Assembly: GCF_002218065.1 (NCBI RefSeq)
Contig: NZ_BDUB01000001.1
Span: forward strand, 5,425,039-5,482,519
Length of the DNA: 57,481 bases
From: Nodularia sp. NIES-3585
GTDB lineage: Bacteria; Cyanobacteriota; Cyanobacteriia; Cyanobacteriales; Nostocaceae
Direction of reading: 5' to 3'
The notes under the pieces are model-generated. The model had not been told where the DNA came from. It made no database searches and worked only from the letters and a program-made list of their open reading frames with translations. This document shows, in pieces, positions 51,042-57,481 of the stretch. Both the position numbers and the translations under genes were made by a program. Position 1 is the stretch's first letter. Each line of letters starts with the position of its first letter.

Positions 51042-54000
51042 TTATTTGGGCAAGAATCCTCCAGAGCGCAACTCCTCTACACTATCCTTTACAGCCTGAA
51101 TCAGATAATCAATATCTTCATCTGTATGTGCTGTGGAGAGAAAACAGTTACGCCCTTCCCAAATATAAACACCCTTTACGAGTAGGTGGTAGAATAACAA
51201 ATCTAAATTTCCTGAAAAGGTAAAGCGAAACAGCGAGCCAAAATAGATGATCTGGATAGGTACGTTTTCTTGATCAAAATAAGCGTTAAGTGTTGCAGCT
51301 AACTCTGATGTGCGCTGATTTAACTGCTGCTGTAGGGTAGCACCTTGAGTCTTGATATACTTAAGTACCGAAAGTGCAGCAGCCATGCCTAGGTGGTTTT
51401 TGTTGAAAGTTCCAGCGAAGAATGTCTTTTCCGTTTGAGGATAGGAAGCATCTCCGTAGTTCCACAAACCACCGTCGATTCCATTCATGTAGGTAGCTTT
51501 ACCAGCTACAACCCCAATCGGCATTCCTCCACCAAGAATCTTGCCATAAGTGGCTATGTCTGCCTGAATGCCAAACCAAGCCTGCGCTCCATTTGGATCG
51601 ATGCGGAAGCCTGTAAGAACTTCATCAAAGATGAGCGCACATCCTGCTGCTTCGGTCAATTGCCTTAATTGTAGTAAAAACTCCTTAGGTTGTAGATGGG
51701 GTTGACGACTCTGCACAGGCTCAACCAATACGGCAGCTAATTCATGACCACAAGCTTGCAAAATCTTCAGCGATTCGGGATTTCCATAATCGAGAACCAA
51801 AACATCTTGAACTATGTGCTGAGATACTCCCAGAGCCATCGGCACGCCAGTCATCTGCCCATTTAGCGCTGTAGCTAAAACTCCATCAAAATGACCATGA
51901 TAAGAACCAGCAAATAGAGCTATCTTGGAACGACCTGTGGCAGTGCGTGCCAGACGTAGCGCTGTCATAACTGCTTCTGTGCCTGAATTACAGAAAGTGA
52001 CGCGCTCCATGCTAGTCAGTTCACAAATTAATTGGGCGACTTCTCCCGCCAGATTTGACTGTGGTCCGATTTGTAGACCCATCTCCATCTGCTCTTGTAC
52101 AGCTTTAGTAATAAAAGATGGAGCATGACCAAACAGAAGCACCCCAAATCCCATTGTGATGTCTACATATTCGTTACCATCTATATCCCAAAATTTAGAG
52201 CCTTGTCCTCGTTCGCCAATAATGGGATAAACCATTTCCTTAGTAGAAAGGCGAAATCCTGCTACAGCTCTACTGTCTGCTATAACTGGACGATAGGTTT
52301 GCGATCGCTCTTTTGATTTTTGAGTCCGTTGGTTATAAAGAGCAATCAATGCTTCTAGATGTTGTTGTTGCTGTTGGCTTAGACCTTCTATTAAATTAGC
52401 AGAATGTAAAGATGCTTTTTCAGAAATTGCTTGAGATTTAACCTGAATTTGAGAATTTAAATATGATGTAATAACGTCTTTTTGTTGGTTATTTTCCGTA
52501 ACAGGAACAATAGGTGTTTTTGTTTGAGAACTACTTGGAGCTTTTCCATTCTTAGATGATAATAAATTGTTTGTAGAGAAGCCGTTCTTTTGCAAGAATT
52601 CCAACTGCTGAGACACAACTTGTGACATACTTTGAGATATGACTTCTAGCTGCTGCCTCATAATTCGTTCCAAGCCAGTCTCTGATGTTATTTCTCCTTT
52701 TTCTCCATCCTGTCTACTAAAAATAGGTGGCTTTGCAACTGTGAAAGGTCTATTGGGTTGAGTTTGTTGCTGCACTTTTAGTTCAGGCTCAGACTCAACT
52801 TCTGGCGAATCGGCAATACTCAATTCTGGCGATAAATTTTGATAAATGTAGGTTGCTAGGGCATCAATGTTTGGTAACTCTTCAAAGAATTGACGAATAC
52901 TAATTTTGAACCCATAAGTACTTTCAATAGCTCGTACAGCATCCATCAGAGCTATTGAATCAGCCCCCATTTCTAGGAAAGAAGCATAAAGCCCCACGTC
53001 ATCTGGCTCCGCTTTAAGCAAATTCGCTACCAGGGAACGCAATTGGAAAACAATTGTGTCTCTTTGCTTTTCTGTAGAGGGGGTAGTCACTGCAAATTTG
53101 TTTTCCTGTTCACTCAATGTGTTATTCTTATAATTGTCTTGCTTGTCAGTAAATTTATTCTCATTCATAGAGAAATTTTCAAACCAATAACTTTTTCTTT
53201 GAAAAGGGTAAGTCGGCAGTGACAAAACTTTTCGTAAGTAGCCCTCATCAAATCCCATCCAGTTGATATCTGCTCCTCGTACATAAAGGGCTGATAAGCT
53301 TAAAAGTAATGAATGCCAATCATCCTTTACTTGGGTTAAAGAAGATAACCAAGTTGCTGTTTCTTCCGGCTGACAACGTTTACCTAAACTTGAAAGAATG
53401 GCTTTTGGACCGATTTCTAAAAATAGCTCATAACCCTCCTCAAATAAGGTATTCATGCCCGTCGTAAATTTCACCGTTTCTCTAGTTTGGCGAAGCCAAT
53501 AGCTAGCATCTAGAACCTGTCCAGGTAGCATTATCTCACCATTTAAATTGGAAATTAGTGGGATTTGCAAAGCTTTAAACTGAATCTGCTTCGCCTGTTG
53601 TTCAAATGCATCCAACATTTGTTCCACGACGGGAGAGTGAAAGGCATGAGAAACTCTTAAACGTCTAGTTTCAACTCCTTCTGTTGCTAGAATAGCCACG
53701 ACTGCTTCTATTGCTCGACTTACACCGGAAATGACAATATTCCTCGGACCATTAATCGCGGCAATCGAGATATCTTGCAAATAGGGTTGAATGACTGATT
53801 GCACTACTACCTCATCGGCAAACACAACTACCATCTCACCCTGTTCTGGAAGTGCTTGCATAAGGCTGGCTCGTTTAGCTATCAGCTTGAGTCCCTCTTC
53901 CAAGTTAAAAGCCCCTGCGACACAAGCAGCCACATATTCGCCGACACTATGACCCATGACGACAGAAGGTTTTATACCCCAAGACCGCCATAACTCTGTT

Positions 54001-54554
54001 AAAGCATATTCCAGAGCAAATAAAGCAGGTTGGGTGTAGACAGTTTCATTAAGAAGGGAACTTTCTTCAGTTGATGGGTATAAGACTTCGAGCAGAGGTT
54101 TTGGTAGTTCCGGGCGTAAAATTTCATTTGCGAGGTCGAGAGTTTTGCGGAAGGTAGGGGCTTCTTCATAGAGTTGCCGTCCCATACCTATATACTGCGA
54201 ACCTTGACCAGTGAATAAAAACGCGAGTGGAGGACGCTGATTCTTAGGTGATTGACCACTGAGCAGTTTTGCAGCCTTCTTTCCAGCTATAAATGTATCC
54301 AGTGTCCTTTGCAACTGTACAGTTGATTCAGTGAAAATAGCTAGCCTGTGTTCAAAATGCGATCGCCTTGTGTTAGCAGAAAAACAAATATCTGCTAATG
54401 ATTCTGTCGGCTCATCGCCTAAAAATGCTTGGTAACGAGCCGCCATATCTGACAGAGCCTGATCACTTTTTGCTGATAGAGTCAGTAGGTGCAGTGAGCG
54501 TTCAATTTCTGGTTGTTCTTGCTTGATGTCTTTGGCTTTTTGACTTGTTTCCAT
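51042..54554 (-). CDS. Polyketide synthase-type AT-ACP-aminotransferase, no KS
   Basis: 1170 aa. Residues 1-105 match the linker that normally joins KS to AT (SLHLLTLSAKSDQALSDMAA), with no KS before it. AT domain about 110-400: FLFTGQGSQYIGMG, active Ser203 in GHSVGEY, and HAFH at 303-306, pointing to malonyl-CoA. Post-AT linker LPTYPFQRKSYWF. ACP about 500-575 with Ser533 in GADS. A long low-complexity linker (575-760, Gln-rich) precedes a class III PLP aminotransferase (about 763-1170) with SGTEA, IFDEVLTGFR (Asp977) and TYGKILGGGMP (Lys1005). Fits the AMT domains that put an amine on an ACP-bound beta-keto acid. AGGAG lies 8 nt before the ATG, so the KS-less start looks genuine. 46 bp downstream of the NRPS. 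Confidence 0.9.
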   Translation of the reverse strand: METSQKAKDIKQEQPEIERSLHLLTLSAKSDQALSDMAARYQAFLGDEPTESLADICFSANTRRSHFEHRLAIFTESTVQLQRTLDTFIAGKKAAKLLSGQSPKNQRPPLAFLFTGQGSQYIGMGRQLYEEAPTFRKTLDLANEILRPELPKPLLEVLYPSTEESSLLNETVYTQPALFALEYALTELWRSWGIKPSVVMGHSVGEYVAACVAGAFNLEEGLKLIAKRASLMQALPEQGEMVVVFADEVVVQSVIQPYLQDISIAAINGPRNIVISGVSRAIEAVVAILATEGVETRRLRVSHAFHSPVVEQMLDAFEQQAKQIQFKALQIPLISNLNGEIMLPGQVLDASYWLRQTRETVKFTTGMNTLFEEGYELFLEIGPKAILSSLGKRCQPEETATWLSSLTQVKDDWHSLLLSLSALYVRGADINWMGFDEGYLRKVLSLPTYPFQRKSYWFENFSMNENKFTDKQDNYKNNTLSEQENKFAVTTPSTEKQRDTIVFQLRSLVANLLKAEPDDVGLYASFLEMGADSIALMDAVRAIESTYGFKISIRQFFEELPNIDALATYIYQNLSPELSIADSPEVESEPELKVQQQTQPNRPFTVAKPPIFSRQDGEKGEITSETGLERIMRQQLEVISQSMSQVVSQQLEFLQKNGFSTNNLLSSKNGKAPSSSQTKTPIVPVTENNQQKDVITSYLNSQIQVKSQAISEKASLHSANLIEGLSQQQQQHLEALIALYNQRTQKSKERSQTYRPVIADSRAVAGFRLSTKEMVYPIIGERGQGSKFWDIDGNEYVDITMGFGVLLFGHAPSFITKAVQEQMEMGLQIGPQSNLAGEVAQLICELTSMERVTFCNSGTEAVMTALRLARTATGRSKIALFAGSYHGHFDGVLATALNGQMTGVPMALGVSQHIVQDVLVLDYGNPESLKILQACGHELAAVLVEPVQSRQPHLQPKEFLLQLRQLTEAAGCALIFDEVLTGFRIDPNGAQAWFGIQADIATYGKILGGGMPIGVVAGKATYMNGIDGGLWNYGDASYPQTEKTFFAGTFNKNHLGMAAALSVLKYIKTQGATLQQQLNQRTSELAATLNAYFDQENVPIQIIYFGSLFRFTFSGNLDLLFYHLLVKGVYIWEGRNCFLSTAHTDEDIDYLIQAVKDSVEELRSGGFLPK

Positions 54555-54600
54555 TTGAAATACTCCTAATGTTTGTGTGGATGGGGTGCTTGTGCCAAAG

Positions 54601-57481
54601 CTAATCTATGACGTTTAAGGTTGTAAGTTCCTTGATGCAAGCGTTCAAACGTTCGGCTAAAACTTGAACCTGAGGTTGAGTCATCATAGTCACATGGTTA
54701 CCTGGGACAAACTGGATATCTACTGATAAGCTAGAAAACGCGCCCCACCCCCAAGACAAATCCTCTAAAAGCTCAGACGGAAACACAGTCTGATCTTCTG
54801 GGTCAGACTCGCTGGCACGAAATAGAGTAATTGGGATGGAATTTACCTGTTGTGGTAGATACTCAGTGTTATTGTTATTCTTGTAAGCTTGCAACAAATG
54901 CTTCAAATATGTGGTATCGGCATTGGGAGGCAGAATATCAAGCATATGAAGATACTCTAGAACATATTTAAGTTGATCGGGAAGAGTTAAAGATCCGAGG
55001 GGATCAGCATCCATCTTCAAATCCTTTGCAAAGGCAATTTGCATACTTTTGGCAATGCTAATTAGCCATGTAGCATCATCTAATTCTTCTGTTTTTTCGT
55101 AGGCTATAGGTGCAGTGGTATCAAAAATTGCAACTAACGTCACTACCTGTCCCTGACGCAGTAATTGCTGTGCCATTTCAAACGCTACTTTACCACCAAA
55201 AGAATGTCCACCCAGAAAATAGGGGCCTTGGGGCTGCACACCTTGCATTGCTTGAATGTAGTGGGCGGCTATATCTTCAACTTGGCTGATATCTGCTAAT
55301 TCTCCATGAGGACCCTGGGCTTGGAAACTGTAGAACGGCTGGTTGGAACCCAGAGAACGAGCTAAATTATAGAAATAGAATGGAAAGCCACCAGCACCGG
55401 GAACACAGAACAAAGGTGGGTTGGAACCAGTTGGCTGAATTGCGACTAAGGGAGACCAAGCAGAAGCATCCGTATCTTTTTGGACTACAAGTGCCAAGTC
55501 TTCAATTGTGGGATGTTGGAAGAGCATCGCTAAAGGGATATCTTTACCAAACTGCCGTTTAATCTGAGTCATTAAGTAAGGAGCTAAGAGGGAATGACCG
55601 CCGAGGTCAAAAAAGTTATCTTTTACCCCGACATTCTCCACCTTGAGAATTTTTGACCAGATTTGGACTAGTTGCAGTTCTACAGTGTTCCGGGGAGAAA
55701 CAAATGTGTCGGAAACACTGGAGTTAAGAGGTACGGATAGAGCATGGCGGTCTACTTTACCGTTGGGTGTCAGGGGTAGGGTTTCCAAGAAGACTATTGC
55801 ACTGGGTACCATGTAGTCTGGCAGCTTGGCTTTCAGGAATTGACGCAGAACGCTGAGTGTGAGTGTCTGCTCTGGTTGCAGGACAATGTAAGCCACTAGG
55901 CGCTGATCCCCAGGAGTATCTTCGCGGGCGATGACACAAGATGTTTGGATATTCTCATTTTGGCTCAGAACTGCCTCGATTTCGCCCAATTCGATGCGAA
56001 AACCCCGGATTTTTACCTGATTGTCGATGCGTCCCAGGTATTCGATCTGACCATTTGGCAGATAACGTGCTGAATCCCCAGTTTTATATAATTTTGACTG
56101 TTGACTGCTGATTTTTGAATTGTCAAAAGGGTTGGGGATGAATTTTTCTTCTGTTAAGTCCGGGCGATTGAGGTAACCTCTTGCCAATCCCGCACCACCA
56201 ATGTGCAGTTCTCCTGGTACACCCACAGGTACTAGTTGTAAGTTTTGGTCTAATATATAAAGCTGGGTATTGGCGATCGCACGACCAATGGAAATTAAGC
56301 TCTCCTTGGATTCCACCTGATATACTGTTGACCAAATAGTAGTCTCTGTCGGTCCATAAAGGTTCCACAAAGAAGCGCTCCTGGCACACAATTGATTAGC
56401 TAGCTCCCAAGGTAAAGCTTCACCCCCGCAAAGTACTTTGAGATGGCTAGATTGGTAGTTGGCTTCTAAAAGTAATCTCCAGGTAGCTGGAGTAGCTTGC
56501 ATGATTGTTGCCTGAGACTGAACTAACAGGTCTAATAACTGTCTTCCATCAAAGGTCACCTCACGATTGGCTATGACCAAACATGCACCTACAATTATAG
56601 GTAGAAAAATTTCTAACCCTGCAATATCAAAAGCAACAGTAGTTATCCCAAGCAGTATATCTTGTTTTGTAATTCCTGGTCGCTCCTGCATGGCAAATAG
56701 GAAATTGCTCACACCTTCATGTGAAATTTGCACGCCTTTGGGCTGACCGGTGGAACCGCTCGTGTAAATCACATAAGCCAAGTTACTAGCTTGCACACCA
56801 GTAATGGGATTTTTCTGATTCAACCGAGAAATCAACTGCCAGTCTGTATCTAAGCAAACCAGTTGGGCTTGATGCTGTGGTAATTTCCCCTTTAAATGCT
56901 GTTGGGTGAGCAGCACGGAAACTTGAGCATCTTCTAACATGAAGCTCAGACGCTCAGTGGGATATTCTGGGTCTAGTGGCACATAAGCTCCACCGGCTTT
57001 GAGTATGCCCAGTAGTCCCACTATCATGTCTATGGAACGCTCTACACATATGCCTACTAGCACGTCGGCGCTGACTCCCAATGAGCGCAAATAATGTGCC
57101 AATTGATTAGCACGACTATTCAATTGAGCATAAGTCAGTTGTTGGTGTTCATACACCACTGCTACGGCATGGGGTGTCCGTTCTACCTGCTGTTCAAATA
57201 ACTGATGGATACACAAGTCATGAGGATAATCTATCTGTGTATCATTCCACTCTACTAATAACTGTTGTTGCTCAGATGCTGTTAACAACGGCAATTGGTT
57301 GATTCTTTGCTGTGGATTGGCGACAATGGCTTCGAGCATGGTGACAAAATGACTCGCCATCCGCTCTATGGTGCTGCTATCAAATAGGTCTGTGTTGTAC
57401 TCCCACCCTCCTACTAGTCCGGTGGCAGTATTTTCCATTGATAAGGTTAAGTCAAATTTGGCTGTGGCTGTTTCTATGGGT
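54601..57481 (-). CDS. NRPS terminal module: C (partial)-A-PCP-TE
   Basis: Partial at the window edge: the frame is open to 57481 and the visible sequence starts within the C domain (AKFDLTLSMENTATG). Then A domain: LAYVIYTSGSTGQPKGV (A3), FDIAGLEIF (A4), NLYGPTETTIW (A5), YKTGDSARYL (A7), PNGKVDR (A10). The by-eye ten-residue pocket is about DILQCGLIWK, close to the glycine code DILQLGLIWK. PCP: DNFFDLGGHSLL. Thioesterase: FCVPGAGGF, YFLGGHSFGGKVAFEMAQQ with the catalytic Ser, and the final His in GNHVTM. Being the last module with a TE, it probably releases or cyclises the product. Part of a larger cluster upstream. Confidence 0.95.
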   Translation of the reverse strand, partial: PIETATAKFDLTLSMENTATGLVGGWEYNTDLFDSSTIERMASHFVTMLEAIVANPQQRINQLPLLTASEQQQLLVEWNDTQIDYPHDLCIHQLFEQQVERTPHAVAVVYEHQQLTYAQLNSRANQLAHYLRSLGVSADVLVGICVERSIDMIVGLLGILKAGGAYVPLDPEYPTERLSFMLEDAQVSVLLTQQHLKGKLPQHQAQLVCLDTDWQLISRLNQKNPITGVQASNLAYVIYTSGSTGQPKGVQISHEGVSNFLFAMQERPGITKQDILLGITTVAFDIAGLEIFLPIIVGACLVIANREVTFDGRQLLDLLVQSQATIMQATPATWRLLLEANYQSSHLKVLCGGEALPWELANQLCARSASLWNLYGPTETTIWSTVYQVESKESLISIGRAIANTQLYILDQNLQLVPVGVPGELHIGGAGLARGYLNRPDLTEEKFIPNPFDNSKISSQQSKLYKTGDSARYLPNGQIEYLGRIDNQVKIRGFRIELGEIEAVLSQNENIQTSCVIAREDTPGDQRLVAYIVLQPEQTLTLSVLRQFLKAKLPDYMVPSAIVFLETLPLTPNGKVDRHALSVPLNSSVSDTFVSPRNTVELQLVQIWSKILKVENVGVKDNFFDLGGHSLLAPYLMTQIKRQFGKDIPLAMLFQHPTIEDLALVVQKDTDASAWSPLVAIQPTGSNPPLFCVPGAGGFPFYFYNLARSLGSNQPFYSFQAQGPHGELADISQVEDIAAHYIQAMQGVQPQGPYFLGGHSFGGKVAFEMAQQLLRQGQVVTLVAIFDTTAPIAYEKTEELDDATWLISIAKSMQIAFAKDLKMDADPLGSLTLPDQLKYVLEYLHMLDILPPNADTTYLKHLLQAYKNNNNTEYLPQQVNSIPITLFRASESDPEDQTVFPSELLEDLSWGWGAFSSLSVDIQFVPGNHVTMMTQPQVQVLAERLNACIKELTTLNVID

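What the first reader, a model, noticed from the sequence alone, without database searches (positions are those of the whole stretch)
51042..54554. Ketosynthase-less AT-ACP-aminotransferase protein next to an NRPS terminal module
Seen: a 1170-aa protein with a proper ribosome site begins at the KS-AT linker, carries a complete AT (GHSVGEY, HAFH), an ACP (GADS) and a class III PLP aminotransferase, and has no KS. Known: such AMT domains (MycA, McyE and related) convert an ACP-bound beta-keto chain to a beta-amino acid, normally in a KS-AT-ACP-AMT protein. Inference: either the KS acts in trans from a separate gene beyond 57481, or the protein has a new use, such as aminating a short ACP-bound malonate-derived unit. 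A split KS/AT-ACP-AMT arrangement would be an unusual architecture worth describing.
Basis: partly seen in the sequence, partly recalled or inferred. Interest (0 to 1): 0.75.

Follow-up and report, generated by a model that had tools for sequence, protein, structure and literature searches.

The report
Split laxaphycin-type beta-amino fatty acid module
A cyanobacterial enzyme that turns a lengthened fatty acid into a beta-amino acid lacks its own chain-joining domain because that domain is very probably made from a separate gene at the other end of the same gene cluster, an arrangement already described for antifungal laxaphycin lipopeptides and seen here in a new and probably shorter version.

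Summary
In detail: window 51042-54554 (-) encodes a 1170-aa linker-AT-ACP-aminotransferase protein with no KS. The KS is not missing. The window ends at the last base of contig C1. The first bases of C1 carry, on the same strand, a stand-alone 474-aa KS, a 4150-aa NRPS and a second NRPS cut by the contig start. Closing the circle gives KS > NRPS > NRPS ... A-PCP-TE > AT-ACP-AMT. A FAAL-ACP gene lies 24 kb further on. This is the laxaphycin (lxa) arrangement: LxaA FAAL-ACP, LxaB KS alone, LxaE AT-ACP-AMT (PMC7524897; heinamides, PMC8471579). The split is therefore published; this is a new member. A-domain codes suggest a chain that starts like a shortened laxaphycin B and ends in Gly like laxaphycin A. 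Points not found in the passages read: KS and AT-ACP-AMT have different nearest relatives; KS relics stand before the second NRPS in two related genomes; the KS ends in a conserved tail that may dock it to the NRPS, although that stretch also encodes the next gene's ribosome site.

The parts
51042..54554 (-). LxaE-type AT-ACP-aminotransferase gene, 1170 aa
   Evidence: 81% identical relatives in G018 and G033
54563..54567 (-). Shine-Dalgarno AGGAG of the AT-ACP-AMT gene
   Evidence: read from sequence
54300..54491 (-). KS-AT linker (residues 22-85), left on the AT protein
   Evidence: Pfam CurL-like_PKS_C
53367..54221 (-). acyltransferase domain (residues 112-396), GHSVGEY and HAFH
   Evidence: Pfam Acyl_transf_1; malonyl preference recalled from motif
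52845..53045 (-). acyl carrier domain (residues 504-570)
   Evidence: Pfam PP-binding
51153..52232 (-). class III PLP aminotransferase domain (residues 775-1134)
   Evidence: Pfam Aminotran_3; nearest solved sequence mycosubtilin synthase subunit A, 6KFU, E 1.2e-174
54601..57480 (-). terminal NRPS module, 5' end cut by the contig end: end of C, then A-PCP-TE; A-domain code DILQLGLIW(K), the same as the last lxaD module (Gly)

Best explanation
The protein is the LxaE-type half of a polyketide module divided between two genes of a laxaphycin-type lipopeptide cluster. Proposed steps: a FAAL-ACP (C1:40076-42214) activates a fatty acid; the stand-alone KS (C1:15030-16454) takes the acyl chain and condenses it in trans with malonyl that the AT has placed on the ACP of the 1170-aa protein; the PLP aminotransferase turns the beta-keto group on that ACP into a beta-amino group; the beta-amino fatty acyl chain goes to the first C domain of the NRPS, which adds Val (with a presumed epimerase domain), Gln, N-methyl-Ile, Asn, further residues lost in the assembly gap, and Gly; the TE releases and probably cyclises the product. 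Gene content and domain content are shown; belonging to one locus rests on closing contig C1; the chemistry is inferred from lxa and mycosubtilin. The contact between the two halves is inferred: the linker that normally packs against the KS has stayed on the AT protein.
For: Domains. Stand-alone KS with intact DTACSS, its stop overlapping the NRPS start by 4 bases. Same set and order in G018 (FAAL, KS, NRPS, NRPS-TE, AT-ACP-AMT) and G067, and without an adjacent FAAL in G033. In G094 KS and AT-ACP-AMT lie on different contigs. Both halves were found in the same five genomes: AT-ACP-AMT without KS in 5 of 192 searched, stand-alone KS of at least 80% identity in 5 of 217 searched; both listings are capped, so lower bounds. 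G018's ten A-line modules fit 11-residue scytocyclamide A, and G033's ten codes fit heinamide A3 (some code meanings recalled). Published assignment of LxaA, LxaB and LxaE. Aminotransferase closest to the solved MycA domain.
Against: No product or enzyme assay is available for this strain. The contig join is inferred: both ends lie inside NRPS genes and do not meet in frame, so NRPS sequence is missing between them, and none of the 27 Condensation matches of the genome is on C2-C4. The FAAL is 24 kb from the KS on the other strand, and two other FAAL-like genes (55% and 54%) exist in the genome. Only one NRPS line was found, and no Cupin_8 hydroxylase gene is near (the single one of the genome is about 180 kb away). 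The published lxa scheme is itself a prediction from sequence.
Confidence: 0.9

Rival explanations
1. The KS comes from another PKS of the genome (for example the C3 FAAL-KS-AT proteins), not from the KS gene in the cluster.
For: Eleven other KS-type places are listed, including two strong ones on C3 (some are probably fatty-acid synthesis genes, not examined), and C3 also carries a FAAL.
Against: The in-cluster KS is intact, sits directly before an NRPS in 5 of 5 genomes with the KS-less protein, and is the published assignment in two producers.
Confidence: 0.05
2. The protein aminates a short malonate-derived unit without any condensation.
For: It has AT, ACP and AMT only.
Against: KS and FAAL-ACP genes are present; the aminotransferase is nearest to the domain of mycosubtilin synthase, which acts on long beta-keto chains (recalled); relatives make beta-amino octanoic or decanoic acid.
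Confidence: 0.02
3. The gene is a decayed or artefactual fragment of a KS-AT-ACP-AMT gene.
For: A module of this family broken in place does occur: G179.
Against: Start codon, ribosome site and motifs are intact; the same KS-less form is conserved at 66-81% in four other genomes.
Confidence: 0.02

Closest known systems
Scytocyclamide/laxaphycin (lxa) cluster of Scytonema hofmannii PCC 7110, LxaA/LxaB/LxaE (PMC7524897)
   Same: FAAL-ACP, a KS alone in one protein, AT-ACP-AMT in another, NRPS ending in TE; gene order of G018 as published
   Different: One NRPS line found here instead of two; begins Val-Gln-NMeIle-Asn and ends in Gly; FAAL not adjacent; the five window genes tested beside the AT-ACP-AMT gene are M23 peptidase, trypsin-PDZ, ScpB, IspD and glycosyltransferase, with no cupin hydroxylase
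Heinamide cluster of Nostoc sp. UHCC 0702 (review PMC8471579, passages)
   Same: LxaB KS completed by LxaE AT-ACP-AMT; FAAL outside the cluster
   Different: Two NRPS lines (10 and 11 modules in G033, which I take for this strain)
Mycosubtilin synthase MycA aminotransferase (PDB 6KFU, 6KFM)
   Same: Same aminotransferase family, best solved match
   Different: In MycA the KS and AMT are in one protein (recalled)
Fused KS-AT-ACP-AMT proteins of the same family of cyanobacteria (G004 Fischerella PCC 9431, G120 Scytonema MAG, others)
   Same: Same domains; up to 86% identical aminotransferase (G120)
   Different: KS fused in front of the AT

Membership tests
laxaphycin-type (lxa) split PKS module | AT-ACP-AMT protein without KS | tested here: met
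laxaphycin-type (lxa) split PKS module | stand-alone KS gene in the same cluster | tested here: met
   same cluster only if contig C1 is closed
laxaphycin-type (lxa) split PKS module | FAAL-ACP starter gene | tested here: met
   66% identical to the G018 FAAL, AMP-binding plus PP-binding; 24 kb from the KS
laxaphycin-type (lxa) split PKS module | NRPS line ending in TE directly before AT-ACP-AMT | tested here: met
laxaphycin-type (lxa) split PKS module | two NRPS lines of 10 and 11 modules sharing the PKS | tested here: not met
   one line seen: 3 modules, part of one, gap, part of one; the NRPS genes at C1:70-91 kb have other domain content
laxaphycin-type (lxa) split PKS module | product is a cyclic beta-amino fatty acid lipopeptide | not testable with these tools
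   no chemistry
beta-aminotransferase of the MycA type | class III PLP family with catalytic lysine | tested here: met
   Pfam and PDB sequence match; lysine motif GKILGGG read
SLiM-beta-hairpin docking pair (KS tail to NRPS) | N-terminal beta-hairpin docking domain on the NRPS | tested here: met
   TubC_N in the NRPS after each of the five KS genes; PDB matches AerJ, TubC, Kj12 for the own NRPS
SLiM-beta-hairpin docking pair (KS tail to NRPS) | C-terminal short motif on the partner that binds it | tested here: inconclusive
   conserved NN(Y/T)(I/V)EGE(L/I) tail, 5 of 5, but EGE(L/I) also encodes the ribosome site of the next gene; binding not tested

The most novel reading that the evidence does not exclude
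The stand-alone KS is a relocated KS that carries its own docking tag: its conserved C-terminal tail binds the beta-hairpin docking domain at the start of the NRPS, and the AT-ACP-AMT protein joins through the linker. That would let one KS/AT-ACP-AMT set serve any NRPS that starts with this docking domain, and would explain how one PKS feeds two peptide lines in laxaphycin producers. Decayed KS copies before the second NRPS in G033 and G018 suggest that each line once had its own KS. The overlap of the KS-AT linker in both proteins suggests duplication of a whole module followed by complementary loss.
Probability: 0.35. Interest if true: 0.55.

Novelty: new member of a known kind. Interest (0 to 1): 0.35.

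Why it matters
It adds a cluster, apparently with a shortened assembly line, to a small set (five genomes found here) of natural PKS modules in which KS and AT-ACP are separate proteins at opposite ends of a cluster. Such pairs are natural test cases for how a cis-AT module can work in pieces, and the KS relics offer a route to explain the published sharing of one PKS by two NRPS lines.

Tried and rejected
Frameshifted KS upstream of 54554: no sign. Simple fission of one fused gene: disfavoured as the whole story, because the split KS rows group with the fused lineage G018b/G002/G046/G165b/G206 (SH-aLRT 99) while holding the split rows with that lineage is rejected for AT (p-AU 6e-4) and AMT (p-AU 1e-29). 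The fused ancestor may already have been a mosaic, so two parent modules are not shown. The KS tail linkers of G018 and G033 match the split AT heads and the G018c linker about equally well, and that of G067 matches neither best; at E 1e-3 the tails of the own KS and of G067 gave no hit to an AT head. The origin of the overlap is thus not settled. Other short-frame KS genes were looked at as possible independent splits, four of those listed (G179, G018 at 6.35 Mb, G127, G208): in G179 (with frame breaks) and G018 the AT part follows in place, in G127 a gene with masked stretches follows, and G208 runs to the contig end. Plasmid search: 98 records with partial NRPS/KS matches, none covering 80% of the query, best listed 27% covered. 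The genome-contig scan found two relatives, both with a fused KS, 2439 and 1701 aa. Of 39 loci given to, 34 gave an aminotransferase-bearing segment; G137, G208, G196, G124b and G011 dropped out. A-domain codes were read at nine positions, the tenth set to K; A domains that missed my search pattern (for example the first of G033 B3) have no code. The 2026 preprint PMC13252402 (abstract and passages) has no hit for laxaphycin. The original heinamide paper was not among the six papers that a search for the name listed, so I cannot say whether its ORF1 or ORF2 is the KS relic of G033. Structure prediction was not used.

Full report
What was checked. The 1170-aa ORF at 51042-54554 (-) is real and complete: KS-AT linker, AT, ACP and class III aminotransferase, no KS. 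An AGGAG lies 8 bases before the ATG. The upstream gene is the terminal part of an NRPS, with A-PCP-TE complete and the C domain cut. On the other side lie ordinary genes: M23 peptidase, trypsin-PDZ, ScpB, IspD, glycosyltransferase.

Where the KS is. The window is the last 57,481 bases of contig C1 of a four-contig genome, so nothing beyond 57481 exists in that contig. A KS search of the genome listed a KS in a 483-codon open frame at C1:15699-16445 on the same strand. The first 16.5 kb of C1 hold, reading towards base 1: a 474-aa KS, a 4150-aa NRPS whose start overlaps the KS stop by 4 bases, and an NRPS running off the contig start. Closing the contig puts these directly before the window's NRPS. 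The ends do not meet in frame: one part stops inside an A domain, the other starts near the end of a C domain, so sequence is missing. The 27 Condensation matches of the genome are all on C1, so the missing part was not found on another contig.

Relatives. A search of 192 genomes of the family listed five in which the AT-ACP-AMT stands without KS: G000 itself, G033 and G018 (81%), G067 (70%), G094 (66%); other full-length matches listed have longer frames, and those I opened carry a fused KS. A search of 217 genomes with the KS listed the same five with a stand-alone KS of high identity: G000 itself, G018 and G033 (85%), G067 and G094 (80%). Both listings are capped. G018 has FAAL-ACP, KS, two NRPS with 10 A domains in all and TE, AT-ACP-AMT, two Cupin_8 genes and a 595-aa gene, then a second NRPS line. 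G033 has an 11-module line, KS, a 10-module line and AT-ACP-AMT. G067 has FAAL, KS, NRPS of 4, 1 and 4 modules and AT-ACP-AMT.

Known or not. Heinila et al. 2020 (PMC7524897; section 12 and passages read) state that LxaB contains a single KS domain and that LxaE is composed of AT, ACP and AMT domains. The review PMC8471579 (passages read) reports the same pair for heinamides. The G018 order fits the published lxa cluster, and the G033 A-line codes (Ser, Thr, Pro, Ser, Tyr, Leu, Ile, Phe, Pro, Gly; meanings partly recalled) fit heinamide A3 as tabulated in the review. The split itself is therefore published. A search for the names LxaB and LxaE gave six papers, of which these two are relevant. 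In the main texts 'docking', 'pseudogene' and 'remnant' have no hit in either. The original heinamide paper was not available.

Product. The own modules carry codes equal to those of lxa modules of known place: DAFWLGGTF (first lxaI module, Val), DAWQFGLID (Gln), DAFFLGVTF with a methyltransferase domain (N-Me-Ile), DLTKIGEVG (Asn), and DILQLGLIW at the end (last lxaD module, Gly). The line thus starts like a shortened laxaphycin B and ends like laxaphycin A. Its length is unknown because of the gap.

How the pair may have arisen. Domain by domain, the own KS is 76-77% identical to the KS of five fused proteins whose AT is only 51-56%, ACP 47-55% and AMT 58-64% identical, while the closest ACP and AMT (76% and 86%) are in G120, whose KS is 49%; the best AT is 62% (G004). 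Trees of 42 KS, 42 AT and 40 AMT rows (quick IQ-TREE, SH-aLRT only) put the five split KS in one clade (100) that groups with the five-protein fused lineage (99; order within unresolved); tests reject the same grouping for AT and AMT. The lineage was named from KS identities before the AT and AMT trees. In the AMT tree the split rows form a group only together with G120 (98). So the two halves have different histories, before or at the split. The KS tails of G018 and G033 and the heads of the AT proteins share about 35 residues of KS-AT linker, which fits duplication and complementary loss but is short and is weak or absent for the other KS tails.

Relics. Before the second NRPS of G033 a KS copy lies in pieces (KS residues 1-123 at 81%, 80-265 at 52%, 411-446 at 61%, 439-474 at 86%), and before lxaI of G018 the last 31 codons of a KS remain (84%). 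Each line probably once had its own KS, and one KS now serves both.

Docking idea. All five stand-alone KS end in NN(Y/T)(I/V)EGE(L/I), and each next NRPS starts with a TubC-type docking domain, as do the NRPS behind the two relics. Such domains bind the last residues of a partner and can be promiscuous (PMC9113145, passages). Of six fused relatives of this kind that end after the AMT and whose downstream stretch I read, the two that are followed by an NRPS with such a domain (G058, G050) end in RVRGVL, and of the four without one in the stretch read, G120 ends in IEGIL while G018b, G002 and G012 have no such tail; four further AMT-bearing segments with a stop (G106b, G179, G019, G023) were not followed up. 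Against it: the codons of EGE(L/I) form the ribosome site of the overlapping NRPS gene, which alone could conserve them, and the dead relics keep the tail too. In favour: six of the eight tail codons show a synonymous change among the five genes, three of them also a change of residue. I give this about one in three.

Verdict. Confirmed observation; the trans-KS reading is very probably right; the architecture is already known; the cluster is a new, probably shorter member.

Noticed in passing
C1 ends: window 57481 and L056:1: The chromosome contig is broken inside NRPS genes; both ends lie in NRPS genes on the same strand and do not meet in frame.
   Followed up: partly
L155:133-1566 (G033) and G018 joined stretch 56025-56117 = L062:16025-16117: Decayed copies of the stand-alone KS directly before the second NRPS line, in pieces in G033 and only the last 31 codons in G018.
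   Followed up: partly
L150:4134-13447, L151:8708-17999, L152:1-11155: Stand-alone class III aminotransferases, 64-65% identical to this AMT, next to NRPS genes that end in a reductase domain; probably amination of a released aldehyde, as recalled for MxcL of myxochelin. 28 of 192 genomes in the capped list show AMT-only frames of 471-505 aa; three were opened.
   Followed up: partly
L069:10753-15858 (G120): A fused 1701-aa KS-AT-ACP-AMT stands after an NRPS-TE gene and two small genes; its C-terminus reads KQIEGIL, like the KS tails.
   Followed up: partly
G000 C1:70040-78625 (L076:10040-18625): A 2861-aa protein with FkbM methyltransferase, sulfotransferase and NRPS domains.
   Followed up: no
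G000 C3:38870-48494: A second FAAL-KS-AT type PKS on a 59-kb contig of the same genome.
   Followed up: no
L156:3672-10051 (G179): A KS-AT-ACP-AMT module broken in place by frame breaks.
   Followed up: partly
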